A stretch of DNA of 64,000 nucleotides from positions 2,614,607 through 2,678,606 of the forward strand of contig NZ_DS990556.1 of the NCBI RefSeq assembly GCF_000155635.1. The letters run 5' to 3'. Below, piece by piece: positions 37,964 through 46,544 of this stretch. Source of the DNA: Cyanobium sp. PCC 7001. GTDB taxonomy: Bacteria; Cyanobacteriota; Cyanobacteriia; PCC-6307; Cyanobiaceae. Made by a program: the position numbers and the translations under genes. The notes under the pieces were generated by a model that searched no databases, was not told where the DNA came from, and was given only the letters and a program-made list of their open reading frames with translations. Position 1 is the first letter of the stretch. Each line of letters begins with the position of its first letter.

Positions 37964-38284
37964 TCATTCGGTAGCGCTCCCGGGGGCCGGCAGAGGCGGT
38001 GGCGGCAGGGGGAAGCTGGATTCGCTCGGCGGGGCCTGGCTGGACTGGGGCGAAGTCGGGGTTGACTCGGCGCCGGGCAAGCCAATCGAGGGCACAACGA
38101 GCGGTTCGTTGGCGTTCTCCTTGCGGCGTTGTTCCTCGAGCTCTTGGCGCAGTGTCTGAATTTCCTGCTGATTCTTCAGCTCCCGTTGCTTCTGCTCATC
38201 CACAGCTCGGTACACCGCGACCACCGTGAGGCCGATCGTTCCGATGGCAGCGAAGGTTGAGATCGTCGATTGAAATCGGCTCAT
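37964..38284 (-). CDS. Small membrane-anchored coiled-coil protein, unknown function
   Basis: A 106-aa protein in three parts: an N-terminal membrane anchor (about residues 8-25, TFAAIGTIGLTVVAVYRA), a charged helical stretch likely to be a coiled coil (about 28-58, QKQRELKNQQEIQTLRQELE), and a Ser/Pro-rich tail ending in a run of prolines. I recognise no family. It converges on groEL and lies 35 bp from the groEL terminator. Confidence 0.7.
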   Translation of the reverse strand: MSRFQSTISTFAAIGTIGLTVVAVYRAVDEQKQRELKNQQEIQTLRQELEEQRRKENANEPLVVPSIGLPGAESTPTSPQSSQAPPSESSFPLPPPPLPAPGSATE

Positions 38285-38413: not shown

Positions 38414-39118
38414 TCACTCCAGGGCCAGATGCCGTTTCAGCAGGGGGGCCAGGAGACGATCAAACAGCAGCCGCCAATAGGTGTCGGACATGTGGACCGG
38501 GTCTTGGCCATCGCTGCTGCGGAGGTAGCGGCGTTGCGTGACATGATCACGATCGAGCACGTCTGTGAACTGAGGACAGAGCAGAAGACCAGAGCTTCGG
38601 CAGAACGCCTCGAGATGCTCGCCGAACCGCTGCTTCACCGGCTTGGGAACCAGGCGGTAGGAGTCCATGCAGGCTTCGGGGTCACGAATGAGAATGACCT
38701 TGGCGCTGGTCAGCGTGGGGAACAGGGCGAGTGGCTCGTTGTACCACCGCAGCTCCCTGCCCCGACGCGTGATCATGGGGTGAAGCGGCAGACTCTCCAG
38801 ACTCAGCCTGAGCACAGCCTCGGAGAGGGGCAGCCCATCGCGAAAAGCGAACCAAGGCTGAATCCACTGCCCCACAAAGATGATGGCGGCATACTCCTGA
38901 AGATTCCGACGTGCCATGGACATGGTCCTGTTGCCGGTCACCGTGGTTCCCTCGACGCGATAACGGCCTCCCGCCGCACTCCAGTTGCGATTGGCAGGCG
39001 CTGCGGTGATGTAGTAATCGGGCACGTAGGCCTTGAGGAGTCCGGCGTGCAGTTCCTCGATGGCTGAGCACTTGGCGTTGGCAAGATGGGACCCCCCACA
39101 CCAGAGGATCCTGCTCAT
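38414..39118 (-). CDS. Putative SGNH-type hydrolase, coupled to GSCFA protein
   Basis: A 234-aa protein without a confident family match. The N-terminus ILWCGGSHLANAK could be an SGNH block I (nucleophile Ser), and the C-terminal DGQDPVHMSDTYWRLLFDRL closely resembles the block V Asp-x-x-His region of SGNH hydrolases. Between them are IIFVGQWIQPWF and RELRWYNEPLALF. Its ATG overlaps the GSCFA stop (ATGA), so the two are made together. GC content in this stretch is visibly below the surroundings. An esterase or acyl-transfer role on surface glycans is only a suggestion. Confidence 0.65.
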   Translation of the reverse strand: MSRILWCGGSHLANAKCSAIEELHAGLLKAYVPDYYITAAPANRNWSAAGGRYRVEGTTVTGNRTMSMARRNLQEYAAIIFVGQWIQPWFAFRDGLPLSEAVLRLSLESLPLHPMITRRGRELRWYNEPLALFPTLTSAKVILIRDPEACMDSYRLVPKPVKQRFGEHLEAFCRSSGLLLCPQFTDVLDRDHVTQRRYLRSSDGQDPVHMSDTYWRLLFDRLLAPLLKRHLALE

Positions 39119-40248
39119 TCGCCGAACGCCTCCAGCAAGGCCTCCTCGCATTGCAGATCGGCTCTGGCCCGCCCGGGGGTCTGAGGGGCAGCGCCCTGAA
39201 GGGCAGCCTTGTGGCGCTGGCGCCTGAGCCGGGCCACGCTGTGTCCCCGCTGACGCTGGCCGCCTCCACCAGCCTCCGGCTGCGCCTCCGGGCGGTGCGC
39301 CCGCGTGAAGGTCTGCATGGCGATGGCCACCCCTTCGGGACGCACCGATCGGAGGTTGGCTGCATAGAACAGGCCTCGGGCTGCCGGGTTGGTGATGATC
39401 TCGTAGGAGGGGAAGTAGTCGATGTCGTCGGAGCCTGCACAGAGTTCTCCGGCAGCGGCGCGAAGCACGGCCTTGGAATACGTGGTGGCTGCCAGCACAT
39501 GGTTGCCGCTGGCCGTTGCGGTGAGTGGCACGGGCGACACGGTGAGCAGCATCCGGAACGGTCTGCCGCGGCGGAGGCGTCCCACGACGCGCCTGAATTC
39601 CTGCAGGGCACTGACGACCTCGGAGCAACGGTAGTTCTGTGACTGATACACCTGAGGCTCAAAGTGGCCAGCGATGGTACCCGGCGCCGTGGGATACACC
39701 GTCTGGCTCCGCCCGTCGGAACGCACCCAGGCTTCGGTAAGCCCGAGGGTGAAGATGAACGCATCCATTCGCTTGAACATCAGCTTCACCCGGGAGAGGT
39801 GATAACGGCGGTGTTCCATCACCTCCGCGGCACTGCTGAGGCCTTCGGGCTCCACACCCGGACGCAGGGCATCGAAGAACCGCCCTTCACGTTGCCAGAC
39901 AACATCGGCTGGCCGGAAGCGTCCCTGCACTTCCCGGGCGAGCTGAAGCAGTTGCTGCGCCGTGTAGATATTCCCATACCTGCAGCTGTAGAGCGAGAAT
40001 CCAAAGCGCTGATGGTCTGGCTCGGCAAGCGAACAGGGAGGCTTTTCCAGGTCCAGCACATTGAACTTCTCATCTCTGAGGTGCGTGGTGATGTGCTGGG
40101 CAAAGCAACTACCAGCGGTGGCGATCTTTGTGTTGGGGCTCAGGATCCACTTGGGGGTGTAGAGCTCCTCGGCCGTGAAGGGCGAACTCTCGACCACGGC
40201 CCGACGCCAGAAGGCCCTTGTGGGGAGATCGCTGTAGGGATTGCGCAC
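39115..40248 (-). CDS. GSCFA-domain protein
   Basis: A 377-aa protein with the namesake motif ATAGSCFAQHI at residues 43-53 and other family blocks: FIFTLGLTEAWV, LTVSPVPLTATASG, and DIDYFPSYEII. The C-terminus is basic and low-complexity (about residues 318-365). The GSCFA family is related to SGNH hydrolases and has no settled function, though members turn up near polysaccharide genes. It starts at a GTG. Parts of the gene are near 52-58% GC, lower than neighbours, hinting at transfer. Confidence 0.87.
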   Translation of the reverse strand: MRNPYSDLPTRAFWRRAVVESSPFTAEELYTPKWILSPNTKIATAGSCFAQHITTHLRDEKFNVLDLEKPPCSLAEPDHQRFGFSLYSCRYGNIYTAQQLLQLAREVQGRFRPADVVWQREGRFFDALRPGVEPEGLSSAAEVMEHRRYHLSRVKLMFKRMDAFIFTLGLTEAWVRSDGRSQTVYPTAPGTIAGHFEPQVYQSQNYRCSEVVSALQEFRRVVGRLRRGRPFRMLLTVSPVPLTATASGNHVLAATTYSKAVLRAAAGELCAGSDDIDYFPSYEIITNPAARGLFYAANLRSVRPEGVAIAMQTFTRAHRPEAQPEAGGGGQRQRGHSVARLRRQRHKAALQGAAPQTPGRARADLQCEEALLEAFGE

Positions 40249-40325: not shown

Positions 40326-40814
40326 TCAGGCGGGCTGGAAGCGCAGAGCGACGCCGTTGTTGCAGTACCGCTTGCCGGTGGGTCGGGGGCCGTCGTTGAA
40401 CACGTGCCCCTGGTGTCCTCCGCAGCGACGGCAGTGGTACTCGGTGCGGGGAATGATCAGCTTGAAATCCATCTTGCTGGCGATCGCCTGCGGCAGGGGC
40501 TGCCAGAAGCTGGGCCAGCCCGTGCCGCTGTCGTACTTGGTGTCCGAACTGAACAGGGGCAGGGCACATCCGGCACAGAGGTAGGTGCCACGGCGCTTCT
40601 CGGCATTGAGCGGGCTGGAGAACGGACGCTCGGTGCCCTCTTCGCGCAGCACCGTGAAGGCCTCGGGACTCAGCCGCCGCTTCCATTCGGCCTTGCTCAG
40701 CGCCCAGCGGGGGTCGGTGGCGGCAGCGGCGGCATCGGCACCGGCAGGCTTCGACACCAGGGCTGCGAGGCCGGTGCTCAGGCCTGCCAGGAGATGGCGT
40801 CGGAACATGGGCAT
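40326..40814 (-). CDS. msrB: Peptide-methionine (R)-S-oxide reductase with export signal
   Basis: Repairs methionine-R-sulfoxide. The 162-aa protein has zinc-binding pairs CAGC and CRRC, the block CGGHQGHVFNDGPRPTG and the catalytic Cys in RYCNNGVALRF. The N-terminus MFRRHLLAGLSTGLAALVSKP has twin arginines before a hydrophobic stretch and AGA, so it is probably exported to the periplasm or lumen by Tat. ATG at 40814 or 40808. Upstream lies the 14-bp tandem array. Confidence 0.93.
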   Translation of the reverse strand: MPMFRRHLLAGLSTGLAALVSKPAGADAAAAATDPRWALSKAEWKRRLSPEAFTVLREEGTERPFSSPLNAEKRRGTYLCAGCALPLFSSDTKYDSGTGWPSFWQPLPQAIASKMDFKLIIPRTEYHCRRCGGHQGHVFNDGPRPTGKRYCNNGVALRFQPA

Positions 40815-40864
40815 GGGTTGGTGGTGGATCCGGGTCGGAGGGTCGTTCAGGCGGCCTTGGCCGC

Positions 40865-40920
40865 GATCGTGACAGTTAGATCGTGCCAGTGAGATTGCGA
40901 CAGTGAGATTGCGACAGTCA
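40865..40920. repeat. Four tandem copies of a 14-bp unit
   Basis: Four contiguous 14-mers at 40865, 40879, 40893 and 40907: gatcgtgacagtta, gatcgtgccagtga, gattgcgacagtga, gattgcgacagtca. An 11-mer, gcgcacaacgt, follows at 40921 and again 28 nt later at 40949, keeping the same phase. The array lies 51 bp upstream of the msrB start, between msrB and secG. Confidence 0.93.
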
Positions 40921-40964
40921 GCGCACAACGTTCAACTCACTCCATTCGGCGCACAACGTCCAGT

Positions 40965-44984: not shown

Positions 44985-46544
44985 TCAGCGAACGCTGCCC
45001 AGCTCCAGAGGAGCCGAGCCTTCGCCCGTGAGCAGGTCGGTCACCGTGAGCATCAGCCGGCTCTGGGCGTCGATGCTGAAGGCCAGGCGCAGCCGGTCCT
45101 CGCCGGGGCGTCCGGGCGGATTCAGCTCCAGGGGCCTGGGTTGAACGGGCCAGGGCTCCACGCTGGCGCTGCCGGCCTGCCGCTGGCGCAGCACGGGCAG
45201 GCCGCCCTCGAACACCACCTCCCGGCGCTGTTCATCCAGCGGTTCGCCCAGAACCAGCTCCAGCGCCGACTGCCCTTCCCTGCTGCAGGCCAGCACCAGC
45301 TCCAGAGGCTGTTCGGTGGGCCAGCTCTGTCCCGCCATGAACAGGGGATGCCAATGGTGCCTCCCACTGCGCTGCTCCCAGCAGCGCAGGCTCACACCCC
45401 GGCTCAGCACGTCCCGCACCTGCACCCCCGGTGTGAGGGCGAGGGCACCGAGCGCCACCGCCTCCACCGGACGCTGAGCCCGGATGGCCAGCCCGCCACA
45501 GCGCGACTCCAGCCAGGCCTGGATCGCACCGAGCCTGCTGCCGCCACCCACCGGCAGAACGGCGGCGATCTGGGCCAGGCTGATCCCGGCGCGGCGCCCG
45601 GCGGCGAGCACCTGCTCCAGGAGGGCATCCAGCTCCTCCAGCAGACCGCGCTCCAGCAACAGGGCATCGAGCTCCCGGCGGTTGAGGCGCCACTCCCGGG
45701 GCTGTTCCCCGGCGGGCGCCACGATCACGCGGGCTTCGTCGCTCTCGCTGAGACGGCACTTCAGCCGCTCGGCCGCATCCAGCAGGGCAGGCGAGTCCCA
45801 GCCCGATGCCGAGGCTGGCGAGCCGAGGGAGCGGGCAATCCAGCGGTCGATGTCACGCCCCCCGATCGCCATCCCCGCCTTGCCGATCACCTGGGCGCAG
45901 CGAAGCGTTTGTCGGCTGTCCTGGAGATCCCTGCCGGCGAAGCGCAGCAGCTGGGCGATCGGCATCGCCCGCCCTTCACCTCCCTCCAGCCGCACCAGGG
46001 AGAGGTCGATCGTGCCGCCGCCCACATCCACCACCAGCACCGTGCTCCCCGGGGCCAGTCCGGCACCGATGGCCGCTGCGGTGGGTTCGTCCACCAGGGC
46101 CAGCTCGGGAACCTCCAGTTCCCGGCAGGCCTCCACCAGCCATCGGCGGTAGTGGCGGTAGCCCTCGACCGGGGCGGTGAGCACCAGCCGGCTCGGTGCG
46201 AGCCCCGGGGGGAGCGATCGCCAGATGCGCTGCAGCAGGAGGGCTCCAGCCGCTTCAGGTGGCAGGGGCAGACCGGAGCATGGTGCGGCGGGCTCACCGA
46301 TCCGTCGCTTGAAATCCCTGTGCAGTTCCGGGCCGCTGCCGGACGCCAGGCCGGCATCCAGCACCTGGCGGCCCACCAGGGGGCTCGGGCTGTCGGGAGC
46401 GGCGATCCACACCAGGGAGGGAACCACCGGGGGCTCGTCCAGGCAGTAGGGCGGCAGCGCCAGCAGGCCCGGCTGTGCTCCCGGCGCCTGGAACGCCACC
46501 ACCGTGGTGGTGCTGCCCAGGTCGATGGCCAGCGTGCCTGCCAT
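44985..46544 (-). CDS. Hsp70/DnaK-like protein, shortened C-terminus
   Basis: A 519-aa ATPase of the Hsp70/actin fold. Phosphate 1 is LAIDLGSTTTVVAF, phosphate 2 is LVVDVGGGTIDLSLV, and the adenosine motif is LPVGGGSRLGAIQAWL. After the nucleotide domain (about 1-375), a divergent beta-domain covers 385-519; the helical lid and EEVD-like tail of DnaK are absent. No DnaJ or GrpE gene is adjacent. Possibly a specialised chaperone or scaffold; function not established. Confidence 0.88.
   Translation of the reverse strand: MAGTLAIDLGSTTTVVAFQAPGAQPGLLALPPYCLDEPPVVPSLVWIAAPDSPSPLVGRQVLDAGLASGSGPELHRDFKRRIGEPAAPCSGLPLPPEAAGALLLQRIWRSLPPGLAPSRLVLTAPVEGYRHYRRWLVEACRELEVPELALVDEPTAAAIGAGLAPGSTVLVVDVGGGTIDLSLVRLEGGEGRAMPIAQLLRFAGRDLQDSRQTLRCAQVIGKAGMAIGGRDIDRWIARSLGSPASASGWDSPALLDAAERLKCRLSESDEARVIVAPAGEQPREWRLNRRELDALLLERGLLEELDALLEQVLAAGRRAGISLAQIAAVLPVGGGSRLGAIQAWLESRCGGLAIRAQRPVEAVALGALALTPGVQVRDVLSRGVSLRCWEQRSGRHHWHPLFMAGQSWPTEQPLELVLACSREGQSALELVLGEPLDEQRREVVFEGGLPVLRQRQAGSASVEPWPVQPRPLELNPPGRPGEDRLRLAFSIDAQSRLMLTVTDLLTGEGSAPLELGSVR

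What the first reader, a model, noticed from the sequence alone, without database searches (positions are those of the whole stretch)
38414..40248. Lower-GC, translationally coupled SGNH-like / GSCFA pair
Two minus-strand genes overlap by ATGA. The second encodes a GSCFA protein; the first is unassigned but has a possible SGNH block I (CGGSHLA) and a good block V (DPVHMSDTYW). Hand counts give about 52% GC at 39961-40020 and 58% at 40081-40140, versus about 73% at 45181-45240, suggesting foreign origin. SGNH-clan proteins often remove or add acyl groups on glycans, so a two-enzyme surface modification unit is a reasonable idea; the substrate is unknown.
Basis: partly seen in the sequence, partly recalled or inferred. 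Interest (0 to 1): 0.55.

Follow-up and report, generated by a model that had tools for sequence, protein, structure and literature searches.

The report
Paired esterase-fold proteins, probable O-acetyltransferase
Two overlapping bacterial genes encode a matched pair of esterase-fold proteins that most likely work together to attach acetyl groups to a sugar or other small molecule, and relatives of the first protein usually come with such a partner, which suggests what this unexplained protein family does.

Summary
GSCFA (40248-39115, minus) overlaps a 234-aa gene (39118-38414) by ATGA. The 234-aa protein has no Pfam or NCBIfam family but a predicted SGNH/GDSL fold, with Ser10 and Asp206-x-x-His209.

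The pairing is general. Of 105 GSCFA loci examined (14 cyanobacterial, 91 from the family of Roseovarius), 88 have a homologue of the partner beside GSCFA (6 of 14, 82 of 91). All 90 GSCFA proteins in this sample with a C-terminal Cys-acidic tail have a partner: 85 of the SGNH family, 3 WcbI (one fused, one in two pieces), 2 alpha/beta-hydrolase-like.

A 2025 paper (PMC12828459) shows genetically that a GSCFA protein (PipG), its neighbour PipF and PipD are needed for O-acetylation of a peptide natural product; S18 and H211 of PipF and C47 of PipG matter. PipF-like proteins fall in the partner family, and the window pair keeps equivalent residues. In 20 genomes, 7 of 9 SASA (acetyl-esterase family) matches lie just downstream of the pair.

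Best reading: a cytoplasmic two-subunit O-acyl(acetyl)transferase; substrate unknown. It is accessory (seen in 2 of 13 genus genomes at this locus); composition alone is weak evidence for foreign origin. GSCFA could be the partner proposed for WcbI in 2013.

The parts
39115..40248 (-). GSCFA-family protein, 377 aa (start GTG)
   Evidence: PF08885 1.8e-46; the only GSCFA match in its genome; AlphaFold2 model pLDDT 90.4, pTM 0.88, SGNH-type neighbours by VIA
38414..39118 (-). Partner protein, 234 aa, SGNH fold, PipF-like family, no Pfam/NCBIfam name
   Evidence: hit at 4.9e-6 by an HMM of 54 partners from the family of Roseovarius, the only one of 315 window ORFs hit at E<=1
39115..39118 (-). 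ATGA overlap (stop of GSCFA / start of partner)
   Evidence: sequence; same -4 offset in 42 of 62 motif-picked loci
40105..40107 (-). GSCFA Cys48, at the place of the SGNH block I nucleophile
   Evidence: invariant in 54 of 54 aligned GSCFA proteins, Cys in 92 of 92; model: strand 41-46, then S47-C48, helix from 49
39118..39150 (-). GSCFA C-terminal tail CEEALLEAFGE after a low-confidence linker
   Evidence: Cys367 in 52 of 54; residues about 321-360 with low pLDDT, helix 368-375
39089..39091 (-). Partner Ser10 (block I GGSH), predicted nucleophile
   Evidence: Ser in 62 of 62 partners, but the 62 were chosen with this motif
38492..38503 (-). Partner Asp206-x-x-His209 (block V)
   Evidence: Asp in 58 of 62, His in 61 of 62, not used for selection
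40326..40928 (-). Upstream flank: SelR (MsrB) protein
   Evidence: PF01641 2.5e-46; present in 13 of 13 genus genomes
37964..38284 (-). Downstream flank: 106-aa protein of unknown function, also beside groL in G099 and G072

Best explanation
The two genes encode the two subunits of a cytoplasmic O-acyltransferase, most likely an O-acetyltransferase of the PipF-PipG kind. Shown by sequence and prediction: both are SGNH-fold proteins; the partner carries Ser/Asp/His, GSCFA carries an invariant Cys at what I read as the equivalent nucleophile position and no DxxH that I could find; the genes overlap; in the sample examined, GSCFA proteins with the C-terminal tail do not occur without an acyl-transfer-type partner. 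Inferred: they form a complex; the partner's Ser10 carries the acyl group as an acyl-enzyme and passes it to a hydroxyl of the acceptor; GSCFA binds donor or acceptor, with Cys48 either relaying the acyl group from a thioester donor (acetyl-CoA) or shaping the joint active site; the conserved C-terminal Cys-acidic tail on its flexible linker docks on the partner or reaches into the site. The acceptor in this organism is unknown; an intracellular glycan precursor or a small metabolite are the likeliest.
For: [quoted passage not shown] the pipG deletion was complemented by pipFG, not by pipG alone; PipF S18/H211 and PipG C47 matter in vivo (PMC12828459, passages). PipF-like proteins of three Streptomyces clusters (NRPS, GSCFA, hypothetical, TauD dioxygenase) match an HMM of 54 partners from the family of Roseovarius at 9.5e-15 to 1.1e-12; the window partner matches it at 2.9e-5 (same test) and 4.9e-6 (ORF search). 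Partner next to GSCFA in 88 of 105 loci. Tail-bearing GSCFA proteins: 90, of which 85 have an SGNH partner and the other 5 a WcbI (L070 upstream, L122 fused, L132 in two pieces downstream) or an alpha/beta-hydrolase-like protein (L005, L074). Folds. Acetyl-esterase link: 7 of the 9 SASA matches in 20 genomes lie 1077-1245 bp downstream of the GSCFA match, six of the seven proteins also bearing RTX repeats.
Against: No activity measured for this pair; the only function I found in print for a GSCFA protein is in the pip cluster, and even there no acetylation was seen when pipDFG was supplied in E. coli, and the authors' complex model puts the important residues of PipF and PipG far apart, which speaks against a simple relay. 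Pip needs a third protein, PipD; SpcZ-like proteins, which I guess to be its counterpart, were not found in 7 genomes including this one (no positive control). The window has no natural-product or SASA gene at the pair, and SASA is absent from its genome. The GGSH subgroup is remote from PipF: direct hhalign of 3 PipF-like against 5 GGSH proteins is not significant (7.8%); the link runs through the wider family. GSCFA outside my sample can have other neighbours: in Tannerella and P. gingivalis it lies upstream of an alr/vanT-like gene (PMC13298647, passage; tail not examined), and 12 tail-less GSCFA loci here have no such partner. Foldseek gives GSCFA no PDB match better than 1.5e-2, with Ras-like GTPases in the same range. 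The partner model is moderate (pLDDT 71.6; TM-scores of the 11 best matches 0.39-0.54).
Confidence: 0.7

Rival explanations
1. The pair is an esterase/deacylase unit: the partner removes acyl groups and GSCFA is a regulatory or targeting subunit.
For: SGNH-fold matches of the partner model are mostly esterases, lipases and thioesterases.
Against: PipF-PipG, the studied relative, is needed for adding, not removing, an acetyl group. In 7 of 20 sampled loci a separate SASA-type gene follows the pair. WcbI, a CoA-binding putative acetyltransferase, takes the partner's place in three surveyed loci.
Confidence: 0.14
2. The pair transfers an acyl group other than acetyl, or uses a carrier-protein thioester as donor.
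For: Nothing in the sequence fixes the acyl group; the donor for PipDFG is not named as acetyl-CoA in the main text (term search).
Against: The studied relative gives acetylated products; WcbI binds CoA and acetyl-CoA (PMC4104973).
Confidence: 0.1
3. One or both subunits at this locus are degenerate or unrelated in function: a mobile cargo pair kept by chance.
For: Patchy: close partner relatives in 3 of 201 family genomes, its own included; no pair seen at this locus in 11 of 13 genus genomes (in two of these the stretch ended before groL).
Against: Catalytic residues, overlap and tail are kept between the window and G099, whose proteins are 70% identical over both genes.
Confidence: 0.06

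Closest known systems
PipF-PipG(-PipD) O-acetylation complex of pseudotetraivprolide biosynthesis, Pseudomonas entomophila (PMC12828459; passages found by term search, abstract among them; supplements not read)
   Same: GSCFA protein plus adjacent SGNH-type partner; conserved Ser, Asp-x-x-His in the partner and Cys in the GSCFA motif
   Different: No NRPS cluster at the pair, no SpcZ-like protein found in the genome, partner of a remote GGSH subgroup; substrate unknown
GSCFA family PF08885 (SGNH clan); listed as without known function or structure in a 2022 review (PMC9487903, passages)
   Same: Window protein is a clear member
   Different: Here tied to a partner and an acyl-transfer role
WcbI family PF18588 (PMC4104973, passages, abstract among them): CoA-binding capsule protein, no activity found alone, proposed to need a partner that presents the acceptor
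   Same: Occupies the partner position next to, or fused with, GSCFA in alphaproteobacteria (L174 Alloyangia plasmid, L070, L122)
   Different: Window pair has no WcbI; WcbI and the SGNH partner are not detectably homologous (hhalign 5%)
SGNH O-acetyltransferases PatB and OatA and the esterase Ape1 (peptidoglycan)
   Same: Fold
   Different: About 10% aligned identity; as recalled, those act in the periplasm or outside with membrane acetyl-donor proteins, whereas both window proteins look cytoplasmic

Membership tests
GSCFA (PF08885) | Match over the curated cut-off | tested here: met
   159.2 bits against 25
GSCFA (PF08885) | GSCFA motif with Cys | tested here: met
   GSCFAQHI in the window; Cys in 92 of 92 proteins, His at +4 in 76 of 92
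SGNH clan (partner protein) | Block I Gly-x-Ser | tested here: met
   GGSH, residues 8-11
SGNH clan (partner protein) | Block V Asp-x-x-His | tested here: met
   D206-H209; Asp 58 of 62, His 61 of 62
SGNH clan (partner protein) | Fold | tested here: met
   Foldseek best 1.2e-4, the 11 matches with E<=0.001 all SGNH/GDSL-type; Z 12.4, 185 residues, 3.5 A; predicted model only
[quoted passage not shown]
   No canonical block III seen; position 83 is Gly in 41 of 62, position 84 variable
SGNH clan (partner protein) | Match to a named Pfam SGNH family | tested here: not met
   0 Pfam families at E<=1; a homologue in L055 reaches Lipase_GDSL_2 at 1e-3, below cut-off
PipFG-type acetylation module | GSCFA gene adjacent to a PipF-family gene | tested here: met
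   HMM evidence; PipF itself was not held, three Streptomyces PipF-like proteins, named by cluster position, stood in for it
PipFG-type acetylation module | Residues shown to matter (Ser and His of PipF, Cys of PipG) | tested here: met
   S10, H209 and C48 by motif and alignment with relatives; no alignment to PipF or PipG themselves
PipFG-type acetylation module | Third protein PipD | tested here: inconclusive
   SpcZ-like alignment A3 found nothing in 7 genomes, no positive control; SpcZ = PipD is my inference
PipFG-type acetylation module | Located in a detoxin/rimosamide-like NRPS cluster | tested here: not met
   Neighbours are SelR, a 106-aa protein and a GroL-like protein
PipFG-type acetylation module | O-acetyl transfer activity | not testable with these tools
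   needs an assay
WcbI (PF18588) | Match to the WcbI model | tested here: not met
   no hit for either window protein; proteins in L174 (2.2e-29) and L122 (2.1e-18) do match

The most novel reading that the evidence does not exclude
GSCFA proteins with the C-terminal Cys-acidic tail are the constant, Cys-bearing subunit of a whole class of modular acyltransferases whose second subunit is interchangeable between at least three enzyme types: SGNH serine (window type, PipF), WcbI (Cys, CoA-binding) and an alpha/beta-hydrolase-like protein. The class serves natural products in some bacteria and glycans or other metabolites in others. It would explain why purified WcbI was inactive, and the acyl group may be relayed between the two subunits' nucleophiles or by the mobile tail cysteine.
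Probability: 0.4. Interest if true: 0.8.

Novelty: new variant of a known kind. Interest (0 to 1): 0.64.

Why it matters
GSCFA was listed in 2022 as an SGNH family with no known function and no structure (PMC9487903, passages). If tail-bearing GSCFA proteins are one half of an acyltransferase, many unnamed gene pairs gain a testable function, a candidate class appears for the partner that WcbI was proposed to need, and a cytoplasmic, membrane-free route to O-acylation is added beside the AT3/OatA and PatB routes. The 7-of-9 link to a SASA-type, mostly RTX-bearing protein suggests that some bacteria encode the writer and an eraser of the same acetyl mark side by side.

Tried and rejected
Foreign origin from composition alone: rejected as weak. 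Pattern search with the single window protein in genome contigs found no relative; with a three-row alignment it found Roseovarius and a Synechococcus MAG. A weak hit in G284 proved a chance match on the other strand of an FAD-type gene, named by eye. No relative of the partner was found in the plasmid and phage collections (E<=1e-5) or by pattern scan of viral contigs; PADLOC and PHROGs give nothing for either protein, so a phage or defence role was dropped. WcbI as a distant homologue of the SGNH partner: hhalign 5%, not supported. No significant remnant of the pair was found in the empty site of G072. SASA is absent from seven pair-related genomes including the window's, so the writer-eraser idea is not supported here. 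An ORF chooser took wrong frames in several loci (L081, L112, L119, L129, L092, L115, L144); counts were redone with profile searches. Neighbour survey: 100 of 164 ORFs from 20 loci were scanned. The 20 loci were my choice among partner-positive ones, made before SASA was looked for.

Survey limits: 105 loci = 14 cyanobacterial, 2 of the Roseovarius genome, and 89 from the better-scoring part of the GSCFA matches in the family of G736 (one search listed more, unexamined, and held back further ones). L006 and L134 were dropped because GSCFA ran off the contig, and L015 because its match was partial. The partner HMM was trained on 62 of these same loci, picked by position and a G-x-S-H/N/Q motif; the other 26 positives and the leave-out tests are the independent part. 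For the tail count 14 of 105 loci were judged on the last 20 residues only, the rest on the last 32. Loci are related to one another, so counts are not independent events. The three partner-positive loci without the tail by my pattern are L066, L121 and L144 (the last has CEQ). 'Alpha/beta-hydrolase-like' rests on a GGSxGA-type motif read by eye and weak NCBIfam matches (4.2e-4, 3.8e-3), not on a Pfam family. groL, groES, gpmI, atpB, argJ, coaE and gatB are named by eye.

Full report
WHAT IS THERE. On the minus strand a GSCFA gene (40248-39115, 377 aa) is followed by a 234-aa gene (39118-38414) with an ATGA overlap. The first is GSCFA by Pfam (PF08885, 1.8e-46); the second has no Pfam or NCBIfam family. 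They lie between a SelR (MsrB) gene and a 106-aa gene next to groL, the latter named by eye. The genome has one GSCFA match.

FOLD AND RESIDUES. The AlphaFold2 model of the 234-aa protein (5 sequences, pLDDT 71.6, pTM 0.77) matches SGNH/GDSL enzymes: Foldseek best E 1.2e-4, all 11 matches with E<=0.001 of this type; VIA Z up to 12.4 with esterases, TesA 11.4, PatB 10.6. Ser10 starts the helix after strand 1; Asp206 and His209 form DxxH. The GSCFA model is good (54 sequences, pLDDT 90.4, pTM 0.88). Its best VIA matches are SGNH proteins too (Ape1, Z 11.3 over 210 residues, 3.9 A), though Foldseek alone is weak (best E 1.5e-2, other folds in the same range). Strand 41-46 ends at G46, then S47-C48, then a helix from 49, so Cys48 stands where SGNH enzymes have the nucleophile serine (my reading; no superposition was available). 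Cys48 is invariant in 54 of 54; I see no DxxH before the last helix of the domain, while E283 and R300 are invariant. After a linker of low confidence comes a conserved tail, in the window CEEALLEAFGE, with Cys in 52 of 54.

DISTRIBUTION. Within the family 3 of 201 genomes, the window's own included, have a close relative of the partner and 12 of 201 have GSCFA. The pair sits at the same place in the window genome and G099 (70% identity for both proteins). G072, the window's sister among 13 genus genomes in a gpmI/atpB/SelR tree (split of the two 100/100; of the two with G099 99/100), has SelR, the 106-aa gene and groL without the pair and without a significant remnant. The other ten genus genomes show no pair at this place, two of them on stretches that ended before groL. 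So one gain in the ancestor of three with loss in G072, or two gains, are both possible. G072 has its own GSCFA-partner pair elsewhere (GSCFA GC 0.56 near a gene of 0.73; partner found), and a Synechococcus MAG has one at GC 0.36-0.42 beside genes of about 0.6; both lie beside argJ-, coaE- and gatB-like genes that are 76, 59 and 90% identical between the two. Such modules do seem to move, perhaps with favoured sites. In a GSCFA tree the window and G099 proteins (100/100) fall with five other cyanobacterial and four alphaproteobacterial copies (98/95).

THE PAIR IS GENERAL. GSCFA is common in the family of Roseovarius (108 of 248 genomes). I looked beside 105 GSCFA genes (14 cyanobacterial, 91 from that family, the latter chosen from the better-scoring ones). 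In 62 the next gene downstream is a 180-320-aa protein with a G-x-S-H/N/Q block I, 42 of them with the same -4 overlap. A profile made from 57 of these, leaving out the GGSH group, finds the window partner at 2.1e-8 among 2670 ORFs, and hhalign joins the two groups at 99.4%. With the full profile, 88 of 105 loci have a partner within about 1.5 kb: 70 downstream, 18 upstream; 6 of 14 cyanobacterial and 82 of 91 others. Asp206 is kept in 58 of 62 and His209 in 61 of 62.

THE TAIL TELLS WHICH GSCFA HAS A PARTNER. A C-[ED]-[ED] tail is present in 85 of 88 partner-positive loci and 5 of 17 partner-negative ones. Those five are not alone either: L122 is a WcbI-GSCFA fusion (PF18588 2.1e-18 plus PF08885); L070 has WcbI directly upstream, cut by the contig end (48% identical to that of an Alloyangia plasmid), and L132 has WcbI-like sequence in two pieces downstream; L005 and L074 have an alpha/beta-hydrolase-like protein upstream, related to one on a Gemmobacter plasmid. 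In the Alloyangia plasmid WcbI precedes GSCFA with a -4 overlap. The remaining twelve partner-negative GSCFA proteins lack the tail.

WHAT IT PROBABLY DOES. In Pseudomonas entomophila, PipG (GSCFA), its always adjacent PipF and PipD are each needed for the last O-acetylation of pseudotetraivprolide; the pipG deletion was complemented by pipFG but not by pipG alone; changes in PipF Ser18 and His211 and PipG Cys47 matter; no acetylation was seen with pipDFG in E. coli, and the model puts the important residues far apart (PMC12828459; passages). I did not hold PipF itself. The equivalent proteins of three Streptomyces clusters with the order NRPS, GSCFA, hypothetical, TauD dioxygenase match the partner profile from the family of Roseovarius at 9.5e-15 to 1.1e-12, and have Ser20 and D..H at similar distances. 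So the window pair is, with its residues, a relative of PipF-PipG. WcbI binds CoA and acetyl-CoA, CoA being seen disulfide-bonded to Cys14; no activity was found, and it was proposed to work with a partner that presents the acceptor (PMC4104973, passages); GSCFA fits that description. A further link to acetyl chemistry: among 100 ORFs round 20 pairs the most frequent families were SASA and RTX repeats, 7 each; the SASA search over those 20 genomes gave 9 matches (one below the family's cut-off), 7 of them 1077-1245 bp downstream of the GSCFA match. SASA matches cover only part of the model.

AGAINST A UNIVERSAL RULE. In Tannerella and P. gingivalis GSCFA lies directly upstream of an alr/vanT-like gene (PMC13298647, passage); I examined no Bacteroidota locus, and the twelve tail-less GSCFA loci here have no such partner. 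The rule is claimed only for tail-bearing proteins of the sample.

MECHANISM, SHOWN AND INFERRED. Shown: predicted fold, residues, overlap, tail-partner association, homology to PipFG. Inferred: complex, acyl-Ser10 intermediate, role of Cys48 as relay or site-former, docking tail, acetyl-CoA as donor, a cytoplasmic place (no strongly hydrophobic stretch). The acceptor is unknown; the pair stands between housekeeping genes, so its neighbours do not tell.

LITERATURE. A search for GSCFA in 5.39 million open papers gave 7, of which I saw passages of four (PMC9487903, PMC12828459, PMC9503745, PMC13298647) and the listing of the rest. PipDFG gave 1; 'GSCFA domain' with acetyltransferase gave 1, a Chlamydomonas study by title; WcbI gave 45, one of the 15 shown being about the protein by title. 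In what I saw there is no statement of a general GSCFA-partner rule, of swappable partners or of the tail. Most subscription-journal papers and bioRxiv preprints are not in the library.

VERDICT. Real, conserved, and explained best as a two-subunit O-acyl(acetyl)transferase; a new variant of the PipF-PipG kind, and the broader rule about GSCFA partners looks new.

Noticed in passing
   Followed up: partly
L160, L161, L163, L165, L170, L171, L172: SASA-type gene just downstream of the GSCFA-partner pair, in six of the seven with RTX repeats in the same frame.
   Followed up: partly
L067, L069, L073, L077, L109; L177: A sulfotransferase-like gene (PKSGNTW-type motif) directly follows GSCFA, with the SGNH partner upstream instead.
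   Followed up: partly
L096 and L105 (one genome): Two GSCFA-partner modules lie convergent within about 4 kb.
   Followed up: no
37964-38284: 106-aa gene of unknown function between the pair and groL, found beside groL only in the window genome, G099 and G072 among the genus stretches examined.
   Followed up: no
L022 and L056: In G072 and a Synechococcus MAG the GSCFA-partner pair lies at the 3' end of an argJ-like gene, in opposite orientations: a possible insertion hot spot.
   Followed up: partly
L010, L012-L014, L016-L018: Tail-less GSCFA proteins in genomes of the window's family with no such partner; two of them (L012, L013) are in longer proteins without another Pfam domain.
   Followed up: no
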